17,283 nucleotides of DNA from Jimgerdemannia flammicorona (taxonomy: Eukaryota > Mucoromycota > Endogonomycetes > Endogonales > Endogonaceae). A program made the position numbers and the translations under genes. The notes below the pieces were generated by a model that saw nothing but the letters and a program-made list of their open reading frames with translations, was not told the DNA's origin and did not search any database. The stretch is from assembly GCA_003990745.1 (NCBI GenBank), contig RBNI01002868.1, positions 1 to 17,283 of the forward strand, given 5' to 3'. Position 1 is the first letter of the stretch, and the number at the start of each line of letters is the position of its first letter. Below are positions 361 to 10,823 of the stretch, piece by piece.

Positions 361-540
361 AGAAGTCAATAGATAACTATTGAATTTGTTAAAATCACTT
401 GACTAGTCTTGAATAGTTCTTTTTCCATTTCCATAGCAAGAATATAGCACAAACAAAAACAAAAACAAAATCCACATATATAAGCAAGTAAAGAGGTATT
501 CTTCACATTCATTCTTTTATTCTTTAACATGAAAATATAC

Positions 541-561
541 TCAAGCATTCTCAAAACTTAG
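541..561. repeat. Left copy of a long direct repeat, candidate end marker of the old element
   Basis: The segment reads TCAAGCATT-CTC-AAAACTTAG. The same 18 bases without the middle CTC occur at 10909-10926. The two copies lie close to both edges of the CpG-free AT-rich block, so they may be an old target-site duplication. The 3-nt difference and AT-rich context leave room for chance. Confidence 0.4.
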
Positions 562-827
562 TGTCTCTTTATGCACTCTTTGTTACTGGTATCATTAAGG
601 CAAAATTGCTACACTCTGATCTCCAAGTGGTGTTTGACTCTACAATGTCACTAATATTATGAGATCTGGATAGAGACAAACTGTCCCCTCCTCCACTCCC
701 TCCTTCTTTTCCTCCTCTGCTATCTCTCTCAGATCCTCTAATAGAGCTCTGCCATTACTAAGCCCAAAAGGCTACATCTATGCCTGCATCTCAAGTGTCA
801 AGCAGAAAGCTCATCTTGAGCAGTAAA

Positions 828-841
828 AGCAACTTCTCCTC
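828..841. repeat. 14-bp target-site duplication, left copy (mini-insertion)
   Basis: AGCAACTTCTCCTC at 828-841 is repeated exactly at 872-885 on the other side of a poly-T insertion. Confidence 0.8.
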
Positions 842-871
842 TTTTTTTTTTTTTTTTTTTTTTTTACAGTC
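842..871 (-). mobile_element. Ultra-short retrotransposed insertion (poly-A tail plus 6 nt)
   Basis: Twenty-four T (842-865) followed by ACAGTC lie between two perfect 14-bp direct repeats. On the minus strand this reads GACTGT plus A24. The full LINE in this window ends GACTAT plus A26, so the six bases match its 3' end with one transition difference. This is what target-primed reverse transcription gives when it aborts almost at once. Removing 44 nt (insert plus one repeat copy) restores a stop-free 24-codon stretch in the minus-strand frame, which supports a true insertion. Confidence 0.7.
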
Positions 872-885
872 AGCAACTTCTCCTC
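872..885. repeat. 14-bp target-site duplication, right copy (mini-insertion)
   Basis: This is an exact second copy of the 14 bases at 828-841. Confidence 0.8.
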
Positions 886-1043
886 AATAAATACCCCCAA
901 TATGAGTTCATCTCAGATATTGAGAGCAGAATCAACTTCAAGAGACCCAGATTGCATTCCTTACTAAAACTCTCATACTATGGACTGGTCAAAGAAGTAA
1001 GTAATTTTTTAATATATATGGGCATAAAATATAATATAAGTGT

Positions 1044-1195
1044 GAATTCTCTCTAGTAATATAGGATCCTCTCTAGTAATGTAGAATCCTCTTCAGCAAT
1101 ATAGATAGTATGAATTCTCTCCAATAATATGAGTAGTATAAATTTTCTTTAGCAGTAATATGAGTAAGAATCCTCTCAGTATGTAGATATAATAC
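1044..1195. repeat. Degenerate tandem repeat, about six units of 20-29 nt
   Basis: Units begin GAATTCTCTCTAGTAATATA or close variants (for example GATCCTCTCTAGTAATGTAG and AATCCTCTTCAGCAATATAG) and repeat about six times with growing divergence. The array lies inside the minus-strand decayed frame, so it may encode a repetitive segment or be noncoding DNA of the old element. Confidence 0.6.
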
Positions 1196-2094
1196 TCATT
1201 TATTATTATATGTATATAGTATTTTTTTCTGATAAAAAATATTAAAACTTTTAACTCATTTTATCTTTTCTCAATACTATACTAGTTCTTACCTAAAAAT
1301 ACATTTTAATACTCAAATTATATATTAAATATTATTAGATTATATTTATCTAGAGAGACTATCTCTATTAGTTTGTCTTCAATCTCCTCAGTTATATCTT
1401 CTAACTCAATGAAATCAAAATTATAGTTCTCTCAGCAGATGATATCTTTGATGATTCTAAAGAATTTACAGAAGACCTTATGATCATCAATACTGTTTTC
1501 ATTTGTTAACTTCAAGATAGACAAGTAGAACAATATTGATAGCTCAGTATAATAATATATCTTTACTATTATGATAATTATACTCTTTAAGTTAATAATC
1601 CTTGTTATCAATAACTTAAAGGCACTTATGTCAGATATCTTTAGCTTGAGAAAGCAGCTATCTTAATGTTTAAATACTATCTGTTATACTTCTAATTGAT
1701 CTAGTCTCCTTCTGGTAAACTTGAATAATAATTTGGCAATTATAGACTTTAATTCTTTAGAGTCTAAGTCTTTTAGTATATATATCCTTTTTAGATATAA
1801 TCTGAGTTTGAGAATTATATTTAGATTCTTCAGAGTTCAAGTATTTATAAGATTCAGAATATCTAATTTTAGATGTAGTCTTTTTATTAAAGATTATTCT
1901 AAAACTTATCTATATATTATAGACTTAAGTCTTAATTGTTCTTTTATTTAATATTCTGTAAAATTCTCTATAAAATTCTTAAGTTATTTCTCTGAAGGTA
2001 TTTATATATTTTGAAGGTCTCTTAATATTGACTAACCACTGGCTAAAATATATAAGATAGAAGATTGCTAGAAATAATATAAAAGTTATATAAA

Positions 2095-2108
2095 GTAATT
2101 GTTCTAGA
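2095..2108. repeat. LINE target-site duplication, 5' copy
   Basis: GTAATTGTTCTAGA directly precedes the LINE and recurs exactly at 7991-8004 after its poly-A tail. Three upstream A residues may extend the duplication to 17 bp but cannot be separated from the tail. Confidence 0.92.
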
Positions 2109-2189
2109 CTCTCTTTCCAGTACCATTCAGATTACACAATCTTTGGAGAGCACTTACAACATCATTTTTGGAGAAAAGAGACTAATAAC

Positions 2190-4215
2190 ATGGCGACCGA
2201 CAGGTAACCTGAGGTGCATACTGAGCAGGGTGGCCCAAGTGCTTTCGACTGACAGCAGGTGGGGAGGGGTCCAGGCCTGGGGGGGGGGTATGAGGGGGCT
2301 GCTGGTGGGTGGACATGGAAGGGGTGGAGGAGGTGGCAGAGGCTCAGGATCTGGGAGGGCGAGCTTCATGGAGATGGTGAAGGAGAGACAGCAGGCATCA
2401 GGGCTAGAGGGCTGGCTGAGGAAGGGCAAGGAAAATGAGAAGAGGACAGCACAGGGGGGAGCAGCCCTTGGAAGGGGGGGTAGTGGAGCTGGGGGAGTAG
2501 TGGCTGGGGAGAGTGTGACTGCTGATGGTGATGGGACTGTCAATCTGGAAAAAAATCTAGATGTGACAGCTGATGGTGAGGCTGAGTGGCTGAGGCTTAG
2601 ATGACAAGAGGACTTAGTGGATGGTATAATGGGTCTGGCAGTGGCCCCATTGCTCAAAAAATCGATTTTGGTATTCGCGGTTATACTATGCTTCCGGGGC
2701 CTAGCGGTGATGGTGAAAATGGTACTGGGACTCATCACTAAGCAGGTGGCCAGAGCTGCGTCAGTGAAGTTTTTGAAGGGACTGGAGAGAGTAGAGGTGG
2801 GTTTTGAGGAGGCAGCACCATTGGAGGAGGCCCTGAAGGTTGGATTGGTGGTTGGGGAGGTGTGTGTTCCGATGGCATGTTGTCTGAAGTGGGATCCCAG
2901 GGTAGTCCAACTGCTGGTGAAAGGAGTTCCAATGGTGATGGCGATGGAGATGAGAAAGAGGGTTGAGGATTTCATGGCAGAATATGGAGAGGTGGTGGAT
3001 ATTGGATTCCAGGTCTGGGAAGGGACCTCGCTTAGAACTGGTGATATGGATGTGAGGATTCAGCTGGCTGGGAAGGAAGCTACTGGGAAGGCGAGGGACT
3101 GGCCTTTGGCAATGGTCTGGGGAGTGATTTTGTATAAGGTGATGAGGGTGAAGGGAAGTGAGGAGGAGGAGGAGGATTTATTGGAAGTACTGGAAGAGTT
3201 GGATGGTGCTATAGAGAGACAAGCGAAGGCTTAGGCAGCTTTCATGGAGTTGACATACTTGGAGGTGGTGGATGGAAAGTAGATTCGAGTGACCAAGGAG
3301 CAGTGGGAAAGAGCTCAGGGGCATAAGAGGCAGAAAGAGCTGCTGGCCAAGCTGGATAGCAGATCACTGGGAAATGTAAGTAAGGTAAAGGGCATCGGGG
3401 GTGCCGAAGCGAGTGTCTGGGCTGGCAAGGGGGAGGGGAAGGATAAGAAGGAGGCAGGGAAGGATGAGGAGAAGGCTAGTAAGGATCTATTTGCTGATGG
3501 TATGTTTGAGGTTTGGGAGGAGGACTGGGAGGGCTCCCCTACCTCTACCCCTCTTATCAGGTGCGGCCTGGCTTCCCAAAACAGGGCAGAAGAAGATGTG
3601 CCAATACAAGGGGCCCAGAGGGTACAATTCGGAGTTCCAGAGGTGGTGTATGGAGGATAGGGGATGGCAGCTGGTAAGGAGGAATTGGTGGATGTCCTGG
3701 AGGTATGGGATGAGTCTGCAAGCACTGGAGCTGACACCATGATGTTGGAGGGAGGGAGGCCAGTGACTCTGGGGGGGAAGGAGGTGGGGAACTTACTTTG
3801 AATGTGTCAGATGATGAATAACTTAGTGGTGGAAGAGTTGGGGGAGGTGGACTTATGAGTGATGAGTGATGAGCATTGGGCAGGGATACTGCAGGGGGAT
3901 GGAGTGATGAAGGCATTGAAGGCAGAAATTCTGGTGGTGTACCTAGAGGAGGAAGAGTATAAGGTGGATAAGGAGAGAGAGGCAGAGATGGTAGTTATTG
4001 CTGGAGAGCGAGCGGAATACTGTTGGAACAAGTGTCATGGACTGCAGCTCTGGCAGGAGGCATGCATAGAATACCGAGAGGAGTTTAAGGAAAAGGCAGA
4101 TAGAGAGATGAAGGAACTGCTAGCTGGATTGGAGGCTCAGAGGGCAGAAGAGGAGGAGGTGGCTGCAGAACATAATCTGGATACAGCGCAGGAGAAGATG
4201 AGTATGGAGCAGTAG
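2190..4215 (+). pseudogene. LINE ORF1 (Gag-like RNA-binding protein), decayed
   Basis: ORF1 of such LINEs encodes an RNA-binding chaperone that packages the element's transcript. An ATG at 2190 begins MATDR and then meets TAA; this frame appears to join the main frame (codon positions of 2605 onwards) near a ten-G run at 2279-2288, suggesting a slippage frameshift. The main frame has stops at 2602, 3232, 3280, 3658, 3799 and 3856 and ends at TAG 4213. The N-terminal third is Gly-rich. The middle contains EYGEVVDIGFQVWEGTSL. The last 100 residues are Glu/Lys-rich and probably coiled-coil. No CCHC knuckle was found. ORF2 starts 30 nt later in the same frame. Identification rests mainly on position. 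Confidence 0.65.
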
Positions 4216-4245
4216 AGATTGATTGCCAACATAACATATTTCATA

Positions 4246-7200
4246 ATGAACAGTACAATCAACATTTTTTCTCTAAACGTGAATGGGTTACAGGGTGCTG
4301 TGTGATGTAGGAACATTTTTACTTGGTTGAAGGGATTGGAGGCCAATCTCTTCCTCTTGCAGGATATTAGGTGTAAGGATGATGCTGATAAGATGAAGTG
4401 GACGAAGGAATGGGGTGGTGTGGCGATCTGGAAGGGCAAGGTTGGGATTTTGGTTCGGAAAGGCAGCAGAGAGATACAGGATGTGAGGAGCTGAGGGGAG
4501 AGACTGGTCTGGGGTGAGTGGATTCAAGCAGGCTGGGAGTCAGTTACAGTTGGCTCCTGTTACTGTCCTGCAGTATGGAGTGAGTGGATAGATTGGGTGA
4601 AAGGTCTGCAGGAGAGTGGGAGCCTTGTAGAGGCTGGGGTGGATATGCTTGGGGGAGATTTCAATATAGTACGGGACATGCTATTGGATAGAACAGATAG
4701 AGGACAAGGTGCTGAGGGCAGGAGCAGAGGACTGACGGCATGGAAGGAAGTCGAAAGGCTAAGTACACTGATAGATGCTGGTCGGGAGTACTGGGGGAAT
4801 AGGAGGGTATATACTCATTGGGCAGGGGGTCTGGGGATGAGGATCGACTGGATTTTAACTGCCAGCTACTGGGGCCTAGATGTTTGGAAATCACTGGAGG
4901 TAGAATGGTGTCCATGGTCAGATCACTGAGGGCTTTTGAGACAGGGGTGCTTTGGGGGAAGTAGGGATGGGCCTGGACATTGGCACCTCAATTCCTCTTT
5001 GTTAGATGACAAAACCCAGTGGGATGAGTGGGCTAAGGACATTCAGCTGAGGGTGGAGAATTGGCGGCAGGAGGGTGCCTCAGTTGGGGTTAGGTGGTTG
5101 AGGATGAAGGAGATGGCCAAGATTTACTAGAGTGAGGCTGGTAAGGATGCAGGGAAGCAGAGGAGGCATCAAGTACATTGGGCTTCTACTAGATTGACTA
5201 AGCTCCTGGAGGAGTGGGCAAGGGTGAAGATATTGGAGGGAGAAGAGGATTGGAGGTTGATGAGGGTGAAAATGGAGGTTGGGGAACTACAACAGGTGCT
5301 GCAGGAAGAGGAAGAGGCGAGGGTACAGAGCTTGGCAGCATGGCTCTGCTGGCAGGATCTGGAGGAGGGAGAGAGGCCTTCCAAGTTTCTTATGAGGGCT
5401 CTTAGAGCAAGGCAGATACAACAATGGTGGGAAGAGGTGTTGGACTCAGATGGTATACTGGTGCATGGGGTACAGGACATTCTTGGATCACTGAAGGAGA
5501 GATGGAGTGGATTGTGGAGTGAGGAGGAGGGTGGGGCAGATGCTGCAACTATTGACAGAACATTGGAGGATTGGCACTCACTACAAGTAGAGGGGCTAGG
5601 TGACCTGGTGATGCCTGTACAGGAAAATGAGATCCACCAGGTTCTTGCTACAACAATGTCAGGTACGGCTCCTAGAGAGGATGGTCTGCCCTGGGACTTT
5701 TGGAAGTGAATGGTTGGAGTCCCAGAGGTGATGGGAGAGATGACAGCAATGTGTGACTTCATTTTACAGACTAGGAGGTAGGTGGGGGAGCAGGATCTTG
5801 GGCTGGTGATGCTGCTCTATAAAAACAAAGGAAGGCAGGAGGATTGGAAGAACTGGTGGCCAATAATGTTGCTAGATATGGACAGAAAGTTGGTAACTAA
5901 GGTGGTGGTGGCCAGACTACAGAAGGTGGCCCAGCAAGTTGTGAGTGTTGAGCAGAGGGGATTTGTGGGTAGTCAGCTCATCAGGGATGGCACTGCCTAG
6001 ATATATAGAGTTATTGAAGGGGCAAGGGCCTGTGGACTGGATGGACATCTAGTCTTCTTGGATCAGGAGAAGGCCTATGACCAGGTGCAAAGAGTCTGGC
6101 TGGTGAAATTTTTAGATAGGATGGAGATTCCATTTTAATTCTGATCAGCAATGATCAGCCTACTGGAAGGGAGTAGGGCTGTGCTCATATGTAATGGTCA
6201 TAGAGGGGTGGCATTCTCCTTGGGTAGGGGGGTGCCCCAGGGGGACCCACTGTCCCCCATTTTGTATGCTCTTTCTCTGAAATCCCTTATGGATAGAATT
6301 AGGTGGAGGATAGAAGGACTCTCTGTCTTTGGCATAGGATGGAAAGTTGGGGCCTTTGCAGACGACATGGTGGTTGGTTTGGGTTCGATTGCTGATATTG
6401 AAGAGCTCAAAAAGACTGTAGAGTGGTATGAGGAGAACTCTGGTGTGAAGCTGAATTGGCATAAGTGTGAAACAATAGTACTCGGCAACAGCCTGGTGGG
6501 AGGAGAGGTCATAGGAACAATTGTCCCCACTGGTGAAGCAGTACAGTACTTGGGCATCTATTTGTCAGTATATGGGTCAGTTCTGCCCAGGCTTTGGTGG
6601 GAGCAGCAGATTGGAATCTGAGAGGAGGCCCTGCAGAGTTGGGGGGGAAGGCGATTTTCTCTGGCAGGAAGGGTCTCAATTTTGAATGTCTACTGGCTGC
6701 TGAAGTTGTGGTACCTGGCATATCATCTGGACTTCCCAGCCTGAGTGGTGAAGAGATTGGTGAAAACGGTGAAGAGATGGATCTGAGCAGGAGGGCAGAG
6801 TCAGATTAATTGGGAGATCTTGTCCCTACCAGTGGTGAGAGGTGGTCTGGGGCTAGTTGACTTTCTGAAACAGTTGCACTGCTTGCGGGCATGGTGGCTG
6901 AAGAGGGCTATGGAATTGAGAGGAGGTGGTTGGGTTCCTCTGCTACAGAAGATCTGGGAGAGGCGGTCATCACCAAGGGGTTCAACTGGCGATCTCCTCT
7001 CATTAGTTGGGCTTTAGAACACTAAACAACTGCAATATAAAGGATTTTGGTTGGGGATAGCAGAGGGGGTACACCGTATTGGAATTCGTTGGCAGGGAAA
7101 TAAAGGTGAGGAAAATTGGGACCCAGCGATGTGGAGATGGGATCGCTTACTGCTGGGTGGCACTCCTTTAATTGAGTTCAATATTGGTGATGGAATGGAA

Positions 7201-7902
7201 TGCCAAAGGGGACCAGGCCTGGATCTGTGGCCTAGCAGTTGGCAAGGAGTTGGAATTGGCGAAGAGTGGAACTGGCACAGTGTCTGGACCTGGAGTGCTG
7301 CAGTGTGAAAGTGGATGCTGCCAAAGTACTGGGTGGTCTGGTGGTGCATGCTGTGGAGGAATGTTATGCTCAACTTTCACTCGGGGCACCTTATCATAGG
7401 GGGTTGCTTTAACTGTGAGGAGTACTACAATATAGAGCAGAAGGGGGGTTGTGTACAGACACCTGAACATTGGCTTGGAGAGTGTGAGGTATTGGGGGAC
7501 TTTTGGCAGGCAATTGGGGAGCACTTGGGGGTACGACATAGGAGAGATGAAGTATGGGAGAGGTGGGAGGACTTGAGAGATCGATTGGTAGGAGGGATAG
7601 GGAAGGAGTGGATTACTTTGGGCTGAGCTTTAGCTATTTAGGTAGAGCTGGCCAGTCACTGGCTATTTGTTTTTGAGGATGGGTATAGACAGGGCTTGGG
7701 GGACCAGTTGTTGTGGTGGCGTTGGCTTATGGAAGATACCTTAACAGGCTGGTGGCTTGGTTGGGGGCTGCAGAGTGGTCAGAGATGCCGCTTAGTGGAG
7801 AAAATTTGTGGACAAAGTGGGGGGAGAGTGGGCATAGTTGGTGAAAGGGTGATCTTTATCTGTAAGGAGGTGGGGAGGAGCTCCCCTATGGGGATTGGGT
7901 AG
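4246..7902 (+). pseudogene. LINE ORF2: APE endonuclease and reverse transcriptase, decayed
   Basis: The product nicks target DNA and reverse-transcribes the element RNA from the nick. It starts MNSTINIFSLNVNGLQG (4246). Endonuclease motifs are SLNVNG (4270-4287), LQDIR (4357-4371, Asp where Glu is usual), GGDFN (4651-4665) and WSDH (4915-4926). Reverse-transcriptase motifs are DGLPWDFWK (5680-5706), FLDQEKAYDQV (6055-6087), VPQGDPLSP (6232-6258) and the catalytic FADD (6355-6366). A C-terminal Cys-x2-Cys, His and Cys cluster spans 7405-7485. Sixteen in-frame stops interrupt it, at 4303, 4492, 4927, 5128, 5707, 5779, 5998, 6136, 6142, 6619, 6742, 6784, 7015, 7306, 7624 and 7639 (ten TGA, five TAG, one TAA), with no frameshift over 3.6 kb. 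Confidence 0.9.
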
Positions 7903-7964
7903 TGTGTGGTGATGATGTATACTTATTCATAGACTGGTAATAAAGGCAGAGTCCGTGTGACTAT

Positions 7965-7990
7965 AAAAAAAAAAAAAAAAAAAAAAAAAA
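7965..7990 (+). other. LINE poly-A tail
   Basis: Twenty-six A follow GACTAT and directly abut the downstream target-site copy. This fixes the element's 3' end and its orientation. Confidence 0.95.
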
Positions 7991-8004: not shown

Positions 8005-8740
8005 TTTCAACTAAGACTTATAATATAGTATTTTATTATATCATATAGTAGTAATGGACCTCTGTATAAGGGGTTAGAGGCTCTCTATCTATCTCTGTAC
8101 TAGATGAGGAATAGGTTAGCTCTTCTGAGCTAGCTTCTGATCTTATAATCTTAGATAATATAGAAGACCAGTCAGAGACTAGTCTAACATTGGAAAGAAC
8201 AGAGTAGCCAGATGACCAGATACTGATAGGGATAGAGACTTATGCAATTGGTTCTTGAAAGAGGCCAATGATAGAGTTGAACACCTTGTTCTCATAAGGC
8301 CAAGTATCATTATTATAGTGGTCTTGAAGGTTAAAGTTATTTGTAAGATCTAACTCTACTTGTATAGTATAGGTATCATTAAGGCTATCAATTTTGACAG
8401 AAGCTATCCTTTATATACCACTAATAATAAAGAATATTTTCCTAAAGAGTTGGTAAATATAAAGCAAAATATGCTATTTAAATATAAAGATATTATATTC
8501 ATTTAGTATTTCTGAAGTATTTATACTACTTTTGACAATAAGTCTACCTACCTGATAGTTTCTTAATATTATGAAGTATTTGATAATTTGTTACATTCTA
8601 GATACAACTTTATCAGTAGCTTATAGATACTACTTAAGATTATAGATATTTATATTAATATATTCTCAGATAAACTAATATTGATAGTCAAAGACAGCAT
8701 TCCAGAGTGCTTGGTAGATATGTTCAGAGAGAGAGGACAT
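8005..8740 (-). pseudogene. 5' part of the decayed unknown gene
   Basis: The minus-strand frame opens with an ATG at 8740 (MSSLSEHIYQALWNAVFDYQ) and runs in one frame to the LINE insertion point, with about 11 in-frame stops and no frameshift. Two runs of about 60 codons are stop-free; one contains NNDTWPYENKVFNSIIGLFQ. Another segment is Ser/Glu-rich. The frame resumes at 2108 on the far side of the LINE. Together the halves give about 745 codons. I do not recognise the family and see no transposase signature. Its divergent placement beside the Fanzor-like gene suggests it belongs to the same element. Confidence 0.5.
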
Positions 8741-9300
8741 GATTTATTTATATTTAGTTTTGTTTTGGAGAGGTATCTTTGAGTTCATATAGCTATTATT
8801 TTAATTGATTATTTTTCAGAACCAATTTGCTGGTCTTTTATTTGTCAAATAAACTATTTTAGTATATGACAACTATAATTTTATAGCTTGTTATAGTCTA
8901 GTTTAGCCTATGAAGTTACTGATCTTGAAGATCTTACTAGCTTCTGATATTAGAGAGCTGATGATATCAGTGATTAATTTTAATATATTCTAATTACTAT
9001 GATATTATAGACTATTTTAGTTTATGATATCAATATAGCTATAGACTAATTTAGTCTCATGCTATTTTTAGCATCCTTAGTCTATTTTTAAGGATATCTA
9101 TAATGATATTAGTGTGAGTATATATTAAACTAGTATAGAGACTAGTATGACTACTATAATATTATTAGTTGAAGAGAGCTGAAATTAGTATAAAATCATT
9201 ATAATCATACTAATATTCTTGGTTTTTCTAGCATATAACCTTGCTGGTGATACAAATCCAATAATGTTAGCTTAATAATATCATCTTTTGTGATATTGAG
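8741..9300. promoter_or_regulatory. AT-rich spacer between the two divergent decayed genes
   Basis: No convincing frame was found on either strand. The spacer contains three related 21-22 nt motifs (8892-8912, 9006-9026, 9040-9061) and two ACTAGTAT copies 12 nt apart (9129-9136, 9141-9148). By position it would hold the promoters of both decayed genes; this is inference. Confidence 0.35.
8892..9061. repeat. Three copies of a 21-22 nt motif
   Basis: The copies at 8892-8912, 9006-9026 and 9040-9061 share a core close to TATAGWCTADTTTAG followed by YYTATG or YYCATG, all in the same orientation. They could be binding sites for an element-encoded protein, or remnants of local duplication. Confidence 0.5.
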
Positions 9301-9470
9301 ATATAATTTCATTATACTCAGAAAGTAGTAGTAGTAAGTCAAATAGAAGTTATACTATTATAAGAAACAGTAAGTGATAGATACAGTGATAAGATCAATA
9401 AAAGTGAGGGTATATCTGAATATAAGGTAGAGTTCATTGATGAAACAATAGATATATTGTGCTAGGTAAG
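9300..9470 (+). pseudogene. Coding-like fragment, possible first exon of the Fanzor-like gene
   Basis: Within this stretch the frame of 9364 gives a 33-codon stop-free acidic run (9364-9462) including SDRYSDKINKSEGISEYK, then TAG, then GTAAGT at 9466-9471, which resembles a splice donor. It lies in the same frame as the RuvC-I region further right. Whether it belongs to the Fanzor-like gene is uncertain. Confidence 0.3.
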
Positions 9471-9492
9471 TTTTTTTTTTTTTTTTTTTTTT
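9471..9492. repeat. T22 homopolymer
   Basis: Twenty-two T follow a GTAAG. Unlike the tract at 842 there is no direct repeat that I can find on its two sides, so it cannot be called a retro-insertion from the sequence. It could be an intron tract or an old tail whose duplication has decayed. Confidence 0.6.
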
Positions 9493-9699
9493 CATTTATT
9501 TAAACTTTTTATTAATATATTTATTTTCTTTTTAAAAAAGAGTTATATATAATATAGTTATTACCAACTATTAGTAAATAAGACATTATAACCACTAGTT
9601 CTTCTTCTATATTCTGCTCAAGTATAAAATCAGGACTACATATCACTAGTACTTCATGAAGACAGTTTCATATGAGGTTTTGGACCATATAATCATATT

Positions 9700-10740
9700 A
9701 GTAATCTAGATATAAAATAAGATATACTGATATAACAATGAGCTCAGAAATGTAGAATAGTTATTATAGTATAAACTTAGTTTTATACCAAGAAAAATCT
9801 CATTTAAACTATTATAATCTATACTCAGTATTGTTGCATATTTCTCTAATTCTACTTTCAGCTATTGCACAATAAGGAGCTACTATCTACAGATTTTAAC
9901 CACCCATATTATAAGGTGAAACCACTATTATATCATAAGTACTGAAGAAAGAACTACTACTGGTCTAATGATGGACTTATTGAGATAGACTCAAAGCTCT
10001 CATATAATCAACAACTCAGACAGTAGATATTTATTTAGATATATAGCAAGGAAGTTATATCAGCTCATAAAGACCAAGCAGAAGTCAATGTCTGTATCAT
10101 TAATTCTGATATTCAGATCTTTCTGATATAGTACTCACCTATACAAGATCATGGTTACTTTGGTAAAAATGACATTCAGTATATAATTTAGCTGCTACTT
10201 ACTCTTGATGATCTCATATTATATATCTGTCAGATACTTACTGATGATGAGATAAGTTCTGTCATATACAAGTATATATATATTAACAGATATATAACCT
10301 GATTGATGAGGTCTACAAGAAAGCAGTATTATGGCTACTGAGAATATTTAATATAGTGATTATCCTCTAGTTCAACTCACATTCCATAGCTAGAGAAAAA
10401 AAAAGAAAGTTGAATAGATATATAGTACAGAAGATACTAATGTGGAGTCATGGATACTTTCTCAACTAGCTACTCAGCAAGGCTGAGGAGCTGGGTAAAA
10501 AGGTTGTGATTGTATCTGAAGCATATATATCAAAGACCTATAGTATATATAGGTAGATCAATTATAGTCTGGATGATCAAAAGGGTTTTTTATACTAGAT
10601 TGCAAATGGGTAGTAGATAGAGATATAAATAGTACTTGAGGGAACTTTCTGCAGAGAATTTTATTCCTTAAGGAGAGGTCTTCAGGCTTTGCTTGATGGA
10701 GCTGCATATAAGTATATGGGTGAAAATCATGTGTTTAGCT
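9700..10740 (+). pseudogene. Decayed Fanzor / TnpB-like RNA-guided nuclease gene
   Basis: Fanzors are eukaryotic homologues of IS605 TnpB: RuvC nucleases guided by an element-encoded RNA. The C-terminal half aligns motif by motif. RuvC-I is NSDIQIFLI*YSP at 10102-10140, matching the DPG-x-R-T-F-L-T pattern with every change a transition. Then come GYFGKND (10153-10173), NLIDEVYKKAVLWLL (10296-10340) and FNSHSIAREKKRKLN (10371-10415). RuvC-II is KKVVIVSEAYISKTYS (10497-10544) with its Glu kept at 10518. The zinc-finger Cys codons have become Tyr at 10539 and 10548. RuvC-III is DCKWVVDRDINST*GNF (10598-10648). Frames change near 10280 and at the T-run near 10590. The N-terminal part is poorly preserved and its start unknown. 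The gene is nonfunctional: RuvC-I Asp is lost and many stops are present. Confidence 0.82.
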
Positions 10741-10823
10741 AGTTGACTAGTATTGATTAGTGATAGCTAGTGGTGATTGCTCAGAGCCATCTGTAAAAGG
10801 GAGAATAAAAATAAAACCTCTAT

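What the first reader, a model, noticed from the sequence alone, without database searches (positions are those of the whole stretch)
9700..10740. Decayed Fanzor (eukaryotic TnpB) gene hidden in an AT-rich region
No long ORF exists here, yet translating across stops shows RuvC-I, RuvC-II, the zinc-finger core and RuvC-III in the right order and spacing: NSDIQIFLI*YSP, SHGYF, VSEAYISKTYS and WVVDRDINST*GNF. Changes from the family pattern are mostly C-to-T or G-to-A (Asp-Pro-Gly to Asn-Ser-Asp, Cys to Tyr twice, Arg to stop). This is a fossil of an RNA-guided nuclease system that gene finders would miss.
Basis: partly seen in the sequence, partly recalled or inferred. Interest (0 to 1): 0.85.

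Follow-up and report, generated by a model that had tools for sequence, protein, structure and literature searches.

The report
Dead fungal IS607 transposon with Fanzor
The decayed RNA-guided nuclease gene is real, and it is one half of a dead jumping gene of bacterial type in a fungus, whose other half, the recombinase that would have moved it, lies 8 kb away because two other jumping genes landed in between.

Summary
In detail: a profile of 18 Fanzor relatives scores 86.8 and 45.3 bits in the claimed region, against at most -0.1 bits in 100 shuffled windows. The interpretation needs correcting. The gene is the TnpB (Fanzor2) half of an IS607-type transposon. The other half, a serine recombinase (TnpA) remnant, lies at w539-1530 (47.1 and 81.3 bits; best of 100 shuffles 0.7). 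The element runs w376-1547 plus w9317-10793, split by an AT-rich element (5-bp duplication CTCAG) that was itself split by a LINE (14-bp duplication). The same genome (134.8 Mb; Mucoromycota by one host gene) gives 82 TnpB and 83 TnpA match rows; 21 contigs have both, in 21 of 21 tnpA first on the same strand. No long stop-free TnpB row was found. Independent copies share ends carrying CCG. Decay is almost all transitions; CpG observed/expected is 0.00 in both halves. IS607/Fanzor2 is a known kind; an apparent tnpA intron, overlapping tnpA/tnpB and heavy transition decay in a non-Dikarya fungus are the useful details.

The parts
376..1547 (+). 5' half of the IS607-type element (left part and tnpA); about the first 27 bp of the family's left end are not recognisable here
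   Evidence: Aligns to L019, L027 and in part L026, L021; family left end seen in ten other copies
539..847 (+). tnpA remnant: N-terminal helix-turn-helix and the start of the serine-recombinase domain (YIYACISSVKQ, family LYARVSSxKQ)
   Evidence: 47.1 bits to TnpA profile, best of 100 shuffles 0.7; P0092 at w533-865, 51.5 bits, 42%
828..885 (+). poly(T) insertion flanked by a 14-bp direct repeat AGCAACTTCTCCTC (w828-841, w872-885); changes the tnpA frame
   Evidence: Read from the sequence; not compared with other copies
871..999 (+). tnpA remnant, middle of the recombinase domain (YEFISDIESRINFKRPRLHSLLKLSYYGLVKEV)
   Evidence: Part of the 81.3-bit profile match; P0092 residues 104-146, 49%
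998..1338 (+). apparent intron in tnpA, opening GTAAGT; 3' splice site not fixed
   Evidence: Match breaks at TnpA residue 146; same break in 12 contigs; GTAAGT also in L019 and L027, GTAAAT in L021
1339..1530 (+). tnpA remnant, C-terminal part of the recombinase domain
   Evidence: Part of the 81.3-bit match; P0092 residues 146-207, 44%
1543..1547 (.). target duplication CTCAG, left copy
   Evidence: single copy in L019 (4871-4875) and L026 (5322-5326)
1548..2109 (.). left part of the later AT-rich inserted element (ends TATAAT.../...ATTATA)
   Evidence: second copy without the LINE in L025 (5221-6553 and 6615-7173)
2110..7990 (+). LINE inserted into the AT-rich element; poly-A w7965-7990; 14-bp duplication GTAATTGTTCTAGA at w2096-2109 and w7991-8004
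   Evidence: PF03372 26.2 bits at w4597-4929 and RVT_1 55.2 bits at w6151-6621
8005..9316 (.). right part of the AT-rich inserted element
   Evidence: Repeated in L025, L036, L037; right end also in many further copies
9317..9321 (.). target duplication CTCAG, right copy
9317..10793 (+). 3' half of the IS607-type element (tnpB/Fanzor2 and right end CCATCTG, family CCATCCG)
9347..9475 (+). possible N-terminal helix-turn-helix of TnpB; weak
   Evidence: 0.1 bits, no better than the shuffles; position is collinear
9775..10224 (+). tnpB remnant up to and including RuvC-I (NSD where the family has DPG)
   Evidence: 45.3 bits; P0013 26.3 bits
10281..10544 (+). tnpB remnant, RuvC core up to the first zinc-finger position (SEAYISKTYS)
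   Evidence: 86.8 bits; P0013 54.2 bits
10545..10660 (+). tnpB remnant, zinc finger and RuvC-III (WVVDRDINST*GNF), frame changed
   Evidence: 1.5 bits, collinear; same DNA in copies that match PF07282 over cut-off, such as C3618 and C89
10718..10793 (+). well-kept right end, with TTGACTA/TTGATTA repeats
   Evidence: 97% identical to L020 over w10718-10791; least decayed bin

Best explanation
The region is the 3' half of a dead IS607-type transposon of a Mucoromycota fungus. When alive the element carried tnpA, a serine recombinase with an N-terminal DNA-binding domain that would have moved it by exchange at a short core, and tnpB, a Fanzor2, which in studied relatives is an RNA-guided DNA endonuclease using an RNA from the right end and is thought to help the element persist. 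This copy was broken by an AT-rich element inserted into the end of tnpA, by a LINE inserted into that element, by a poly(T) insertion and by many C-to-T/G-to-A changes. Shown here: identity of both proteins, shared family ends, nested insertions, multi-copy family, decay pattern. Inferred from named relatives: how it moved and how the nuclease was guided.
For: TnpB profile 86.8 and 45.3 bits against -0.1 in 100 shuffles. TnpA profile 47.1 and 81.3 bits against 0.7. Single database proteins find the same places in a genome-wide search. Copies L019 and L026 run uninterrupted across the break, with one CTCAG where the window has two; L027 and L021 show the same order with 19-20 bp unaligned. 21 of 21 contigs with both genes have them on one strand, tnpA first; 16 of 21 within 2 kb. 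The nearest solved structures are mimivirus TnpB-like L79 for TnpB (154 bits) and IS607-type enzymes for TnpA (ISC1904 138, ISC1926 119, IS1535 85 bits; Tn3 resolvase 25). Shared ends: left CCGCTCA exactly in 7 of 10 fetched copies, right CCATCCG exactly in 6 of 9.
Against: Within the window the zinc-finger/RuvC-III part and the TnpB N-terminus score weakly (1.5 and 0.1 bits). Pfam does not recognise the TnpA pieces, the RuvC-I piece or the N-terminus, and PF07282 stays under its cut-off. The left 27 bp of the element are not recognisable in this copy. No conserved guide RNA could be shown. No empty site was compared.
Confidence: 0.94

Rival explanations
1. A Fanzor1 captured by an ordinary eukaryotic cut-and-paste transposon or Helitron.
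For: Fanzor1 is the type that Bao and Jurka list for Rhizopus, Mucor and Phycomyces (PMC3627910, passages).
Against: An IS607-type TnpA is in the same element; no inverted repeats at the shared ends; the profile's solved-structure list of 20 has mimivirus L79, TnpB and Cas12-type chains and none named Fanzor.
Confidence: 0.02
2. A tnpB-only element that merely lies near an unrelated tnpA remnant.
For: In the window the two are 8.25 kb apart.
Against: Four copies show them next to each other without the insertion; 16 of 21 contigs with both have them within 2 kb.
Confidence: 0.01
3. The copy, or at least its well-kept right end, still does something, such as making a small RNA or serving as a binding site for the recombinase in trans.
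For: The last 80 bp are better kept than the body: share of C/G sites already T/A 0.20 against 0.40-0.56 beyond 320 bp; rho 0.256, p 1.6e-9 over 541 columns.
Against: Both genes are broken; no Rfam match in w300-11400; fold z-scores of five right ends -0.18 to -1.74, the window's -0.18. Constraint before death would leave the same trace. The left end and the AT-rich insert show no such gradient (rho 0.056, p 0.27; rho 0.068, p 0.12).
Confidence: 0.03

Closest known systems
Fanzor2-bearing IS607-type elements of eukaryotes and giant viruses (ISvMimi_1/2, ACa-1, yeast elements; Bao and Jurka 2013, PMC3627910, passages read)
   Same: TnpA_IS607-like serine recombinase plus Fanzor2; no inverted repeats; solved relative mimivirus L79
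   Different: This copy is dead and split; the lineage sits in a Mucoromycota genome and part of it shows an apparent intron in tnpA
Cyanobacterial IS607 family and 'pro-Fanzor' TnpBs (Okeania TnpA P0160/P0161; Yoon et al. 2023, PMC10711439, passages read)
   Same: Same two-gene plan; Okeania TnpA P0160 is 34% identical over 97% of the C2222 TnpA; DPG and a displaced glutamate in the TnpB relatives
   Different: Bacterial; this is a fungal, multi-copy, decayed family
Unnamed Fanzor and TnpA proteins of Diversispora, Cetraspora, Gigaspora, Rhizophagus and of metagenomes (P0001-P0028, P0091-P0119, P0172, P0176)
   Same: Closest sequences: TnpB up to 82%, TnpA up to 77% identity to the C2222 copy
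   Different: Several are predicted as long open frames; some gene models run tnpA in the wrong frame into tnpB

Membership tests
Fanzor2 / IS607-type TnpB | TnpB homology over RuvC core and zinc finger | tested here: met
   86.8 and 45.3 bits against -0.1 in shuffles; zinc-finger part weak, 1.5 bits
Fanzor2 / IS607-type TnpB | PF07282 over its curated cut-off | tested here: not met
   19 bits against 26.3 in the window; sister copies such as C3618 and C89 are over the cut-off
Fanzor2 / IS607-type TnpB | DPG at RuvC-I and the displaced glutamate (PMC10711439, passages) | tested here: inconclusive
   DPG invariant in the 18 relatives, NSD in the window; the glutamate I assign is kept in SEAYISKTYS
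Fanzor2 / IS607-type TnpB | RNA-guided cutting by a right-end RNA | not testable with these tools
   No Rfam match, no fold excess; needs expression data
IS607 transposon | TnpA: N-terminal helix-turn-helix followed by a serine-recombinase domain | tested here: met
   w539-847 and w871-1530 in that order; relative P0092 has Resolvase 69.2 bits (over cut-off) and MerR 26.4 bits (cut-off 28.2)
IS607 transposon | tnpA upstream of tnpB on the same strand | tested here: met
   Window and 20 other contigs, 21 of 21
IS607 transposon | No terminal inverted repeats | tested here: met
   Shared ends of copies, read by eye
IS607 transposon | Exchange at a matching dinucleotide, no target duplication | tested here: inconclusive
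   CCG at both family ends; no empty site compared
Fanzor1 | Carried by a eukaryotic transposon with DDE, Helitron or similar enzyme | tested here: not met
   The element carries an IS607 TnpA; no inverted repeats
Repeat-induced point mutation (RIP) | Transitions in repeats with CpA preference | tested here: inconclusive
   Transitions dominate and C/T columns are commonest before A, but CpG loss is total and ancestral CpG sites can mimic CpA; the enzyme was not searched

The most novel reading that the evidence does not exclude
An IS607/Fanzor2 lineage became a naturalised element of Mucoromycota: part of it gained a spliceosomal intron inside tnpA, tnpA and tnpB overlap in different frames, and the whole family in this genome was then destroyed by a repeat-directed C-to-T process in a part of the fungal tree where I could not confirm one from the papers seen.
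Probability: 0.25. Interest if true: 0.55.

Novelty: new member of a known kind. Interest (0 to 1): 0.32.

Why it matters
It shows how an RNA-guided nuclease fossil can be traced back to its transposon once nested insertions are recognised, and adds a large, apparently dead IS607/Fanzor2 family in a Mucoromycota genome. Copies of different age side by side make it a place to ask how fungi outside Dikarya silence and mutate such elements. It also warns that several public Fanzor gene models from related fungi contain tnpA read in the wrong frame.

Tried and rejected
Pfam on the window alone: PF07282 19 bits, under cut-off; nothing for the two TnpA pieces, the RuvC-I piece or the TnpB N-terminus at E up to 0.1. 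Solved structures with the raw window piece gave one hit, a ribosomal protein at E 0.12. Inverted repeats in w7900-11000: 24 of the 25 longest of 77 pairs are poly-A/T runs. A first blastn script printed nothing and was rerun with default scoring. Counting direction of change against a majority consensus was uninformative because the copies are all AT-rich, so pair and column counts were used; the divergent copy L031 was left out of all of these. A general edge effect was tested: the right end shows a gradient, the left end and the AT-rich insert do not. A guide-RNA structure was looked for and not found. Decay following the order of insertion was considered: the LINE, the last to arrive, is least AT-rich (51% G+C), but the AT-rich insert (27%) is no richer than the older Fanzor element (29.5-30.3%), so composition does not date the first two layers. 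Papers: the listings showed no description of this family in Mucoromycota or mycorrhizal fungi; the two large 2023 Fanzor surveys (recalled, not seen) were not opened, so absence from print is not claimed. On RIP in Mucoromycota, one search found 25 papers, 12 were listed and passages of one were read (PMC12543289); they did not settle it.

Full report
What was claimed.

Check. The four peptide stretches are there. The window is contig C2868 of a 134.8-Mb assembly in 7754 contigs, in which the TnpB zinc-finger family PF07282 has 38 matches, all over its cut-off, the window not among them. On the window PF07282 reaches only 19 bits (cut-off 26.3). A better test used relatives: a long TnpB fragment of contig C2222, read with X at stops, found 90 database proteins among 426 candidates. 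Eighteen of the 90 were aligned and made into a profile. In the six frames of the window it gives 86.8 bits at w10281-10544 and 45.3 bits at w9775-10218; the best of 100 shuffled windows is -0.1. Weak collinear matches lie at w10580-10660 (1.5 bits) and w9347-9475 (0.1 bits). Two more weak ones (1.7 and 2.1 bits at w911-1009 and w1337-1522) fall on tnpA read in another frame, because some of the 18 gene models contain that stretch. A single relative, P0013, run against the whole genome returns w10290-10544 (54.2 bits) and w9778-10224 (26.3 bits).

The element is larger and split. DNA search showed similarity to other copies starting at w9317 or w9326 and ending near w10791, while w9000-9316 belongs to another, more frequent repeat (only 40 of 166 candidates were scored). 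Among ten-kilobase-scale pieces of nine copies, L019 and L026 continue from w9317 straight into w1547 and on upstream, L019 as far as w376, with one CTCAG where the window has two. L027 and L021 show the same order with 19-20 bp unaligned at the junction. So w1548-9316 is an insertion with a 5-bp duplication. It consists of an AT-rich element (w1548-2109 and w8005-9316; a copy without the LINE lies in L025) interrupted by a LINE with a poly-A run, endonuclease and reverse-transcriptase matches and a 14-bp duplication. G+C is 29.5-30.3% in the two Fanzor-element halves, 27.4% in the right part of the AT-rich insert and 51.2% in the LINE.

The other half is an IS607 transposase. The serine-recombinase family PF00239 has three matches in the genome; two are on contigs with a PF07282 match, same strand, upstream of it. 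The C2222 recombinase, read with X at stops, found 87 proteins among 173 candidates, among them IS607-family transposases of Okeania. A profile of 25 of the 87 scores w539-847 at 47.1 and w871-1530 at 81.3 bits; 100 shuffled windows reach 0.7. The protein P0092 finds the window at w533-865, w871-999 and w1339-1527, residues 14-116, 104-146 and 146-207. The profile's best solved structures are IS607-type enzymes (ISC1904 137.8, ISC1926 118.9, IS1535 84.9 bits; also entries named serine recombinase and MJ0014), with Tn3-type resolvases at 25 bits and below.

Family in the genome. P0013 gives 82 match rows on 61 contigs, P0092 83 rows on 57; 21 contigs have both, in 21 of 21 on one strand with tnpA first, the closest pair within 2 kb in 16 (the tool calls such counts lower bounds). 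In the fullest copies the tnpA and tnpB matches overlap: 155 bp in C2222, 161 bp in C3364 (also 137 bp in C6102 and 89 bp in C6264). No long stop-free TnpB was found: 8 of 82 rows have no stop, the longest covering 79 residues (C4761:94-330), and the fullest row (C3364, residues 1-471) has 16 stops. The assembly may be incomplete and exons are matched one by one, so an intact copy is not excluded.

Ends. Ten left ends were fetched, chosen among the 31 rows. Seven read CCGCTCA exactly after differing flanks; the other three differ by one base. Of nine right ends looked at, six read CCATCCG exactly, the window reads CCATCTG, and L019 and L021 differ. By eye there are no inverted repeats; both ends carry TTGACTA/TTGATTA/TTGAATA-type words. 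CCG at both ends is what exchange at a short core would leave. The rule of matching dinucleotides and the lack of inverted repeats and target duplications in IS607 are from PMC10711439 and PMC3627910 (passages) and PMC6188088 (start of abstract in the listing). No empty site was compared.

Intron. In 12 contigs the TnpA match breaks off at residues 146-152 and resumes at 140-146 after 45-88 bp (240 bp in C726, 340 bp in the window); in 25 contigs a row runs through residues 125-165, among them C2222 and C3364 (in C3618 and C7287, counted as running through, a second row restarts at 145-146). In the window, L019 and L027 the break opens with GTAAGT, in L021 with GTAAAT, in C3218 with GTGA. I infer a spliceosomal intron in one lineage; no transcript was seen. 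A GTAAGT at about w9466 may mark a second one in tnpB; this is not shown.

Decay. Between the window and eight copies transitions to transversions are 191:13, 173:31, 206:27, 140:5, 193:12, 113:4, 79:3 and 68:1. CpG observed/expected is 0.00 in both halves and in the right part of the AT-rich insert, 0.18 in the LINE, 1.02 in w11400-16800 and 1.04 in the less decayed Fanzor of C1085. C/T columns are commonest before an invariant A: 83 against 58 invariant T or C columns in that context; before invariant T, 29 against 91 (arithmetic). This fits either a RIP-like process or deamination of methylated CpG followed by further decay. The right end is less decayed than the body, while the left end and the AT-rich insert show no trend; I leave this unexplained.

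Host. The TSR1-like gene at w14161 has its best match in Endogone sp. FLAS-F59071 (127 bits, 63% identity), then other Mucoromycota and Glomeromycotina (48 proteins of 83 candidates). I take the host to be a Mucoromycota fungus, perhaps Endogonales; this rests on one gene.

Known or new. [quoted passage not shown] in the part of their table that I saw, fungal Fanzor2 rows are yeasts, and Rhizopus, Mucor and Phycomyces have numbers in the Fanzor1 column. Yoon et al. 2023 (PMC10711439, passages) derive Fanzor2 from IS607 TnpB and describe the DPG motif, which is invariant in the 18 relatives. The finding is a new, dead member of that known kind. Fanzor with mycorrhizal gave one paper (a review on gene transfer in plants, listing only) and IS607 with Rhizophagus none.

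Gene models. Several public Fanzors of this family (P0016, P0017, P0020, P0024, P0027, P0032, P0038) contain near the N-terminus a stretch like PYWND..LS.KLWLPTE.D. In the C2222 DNA the matching stretch (QRLWLPTKTD) is tnpA (SEIVVTY) read in the next frame. Whether that frame is ever translated is open.

Noticed in passing
window 2110-7990: A LINE with endonuclease and reverse-transcriptase remnants, poly-A run and a 14-bp target duplication, CpG observed/expected 0.18.
   Followed up: partly
window 1548-2109 and 8005-9316: A frequent AT-rich element of about 1.9 kb with ends TATAAT.../...ATTATA, a 5-bp duplication and no recognised gene; its right end has over 30 further matches in the genome.
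   Followed up: partly
window 828-885: A poly(T) insertion flanked by a 14-bp direct repeat inside tnpA, like a tail-only retroposition.
   Followed up: no
window 10718-10793 and copies: The right end of the element is markedly less decayed than its body, with a gradient over about 400 bp; the left end and the AT-rich insert show none.
   Followed up: partly
proteins P0016, P0017, P0020, P0024, P0027, P0032, P0038: Public Fanzor models carry tnpA read in another frame as a false or overlapping N-terminus.
   Followed up: partly
proteins P0172 and P0176 (Rhizophagus irregularis), P0100 (metagenome): Gene models that fuse the start of TnpA, or the whole recombinase, to the start of TnpB in one frame.
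   Followed up: no
window 14161 onward: Host gene for a TSR1-like ribosome-assembly factor, closest to Endogone sp. FLAS-F59071.
   Followed up: yes
L039 (contig C3331): Recombinase remnant followed by a TnpB-like stretch (DPGVQIFITGYN) read by eye, missed by both genome-wide TnpB searches.
   Followed up: no
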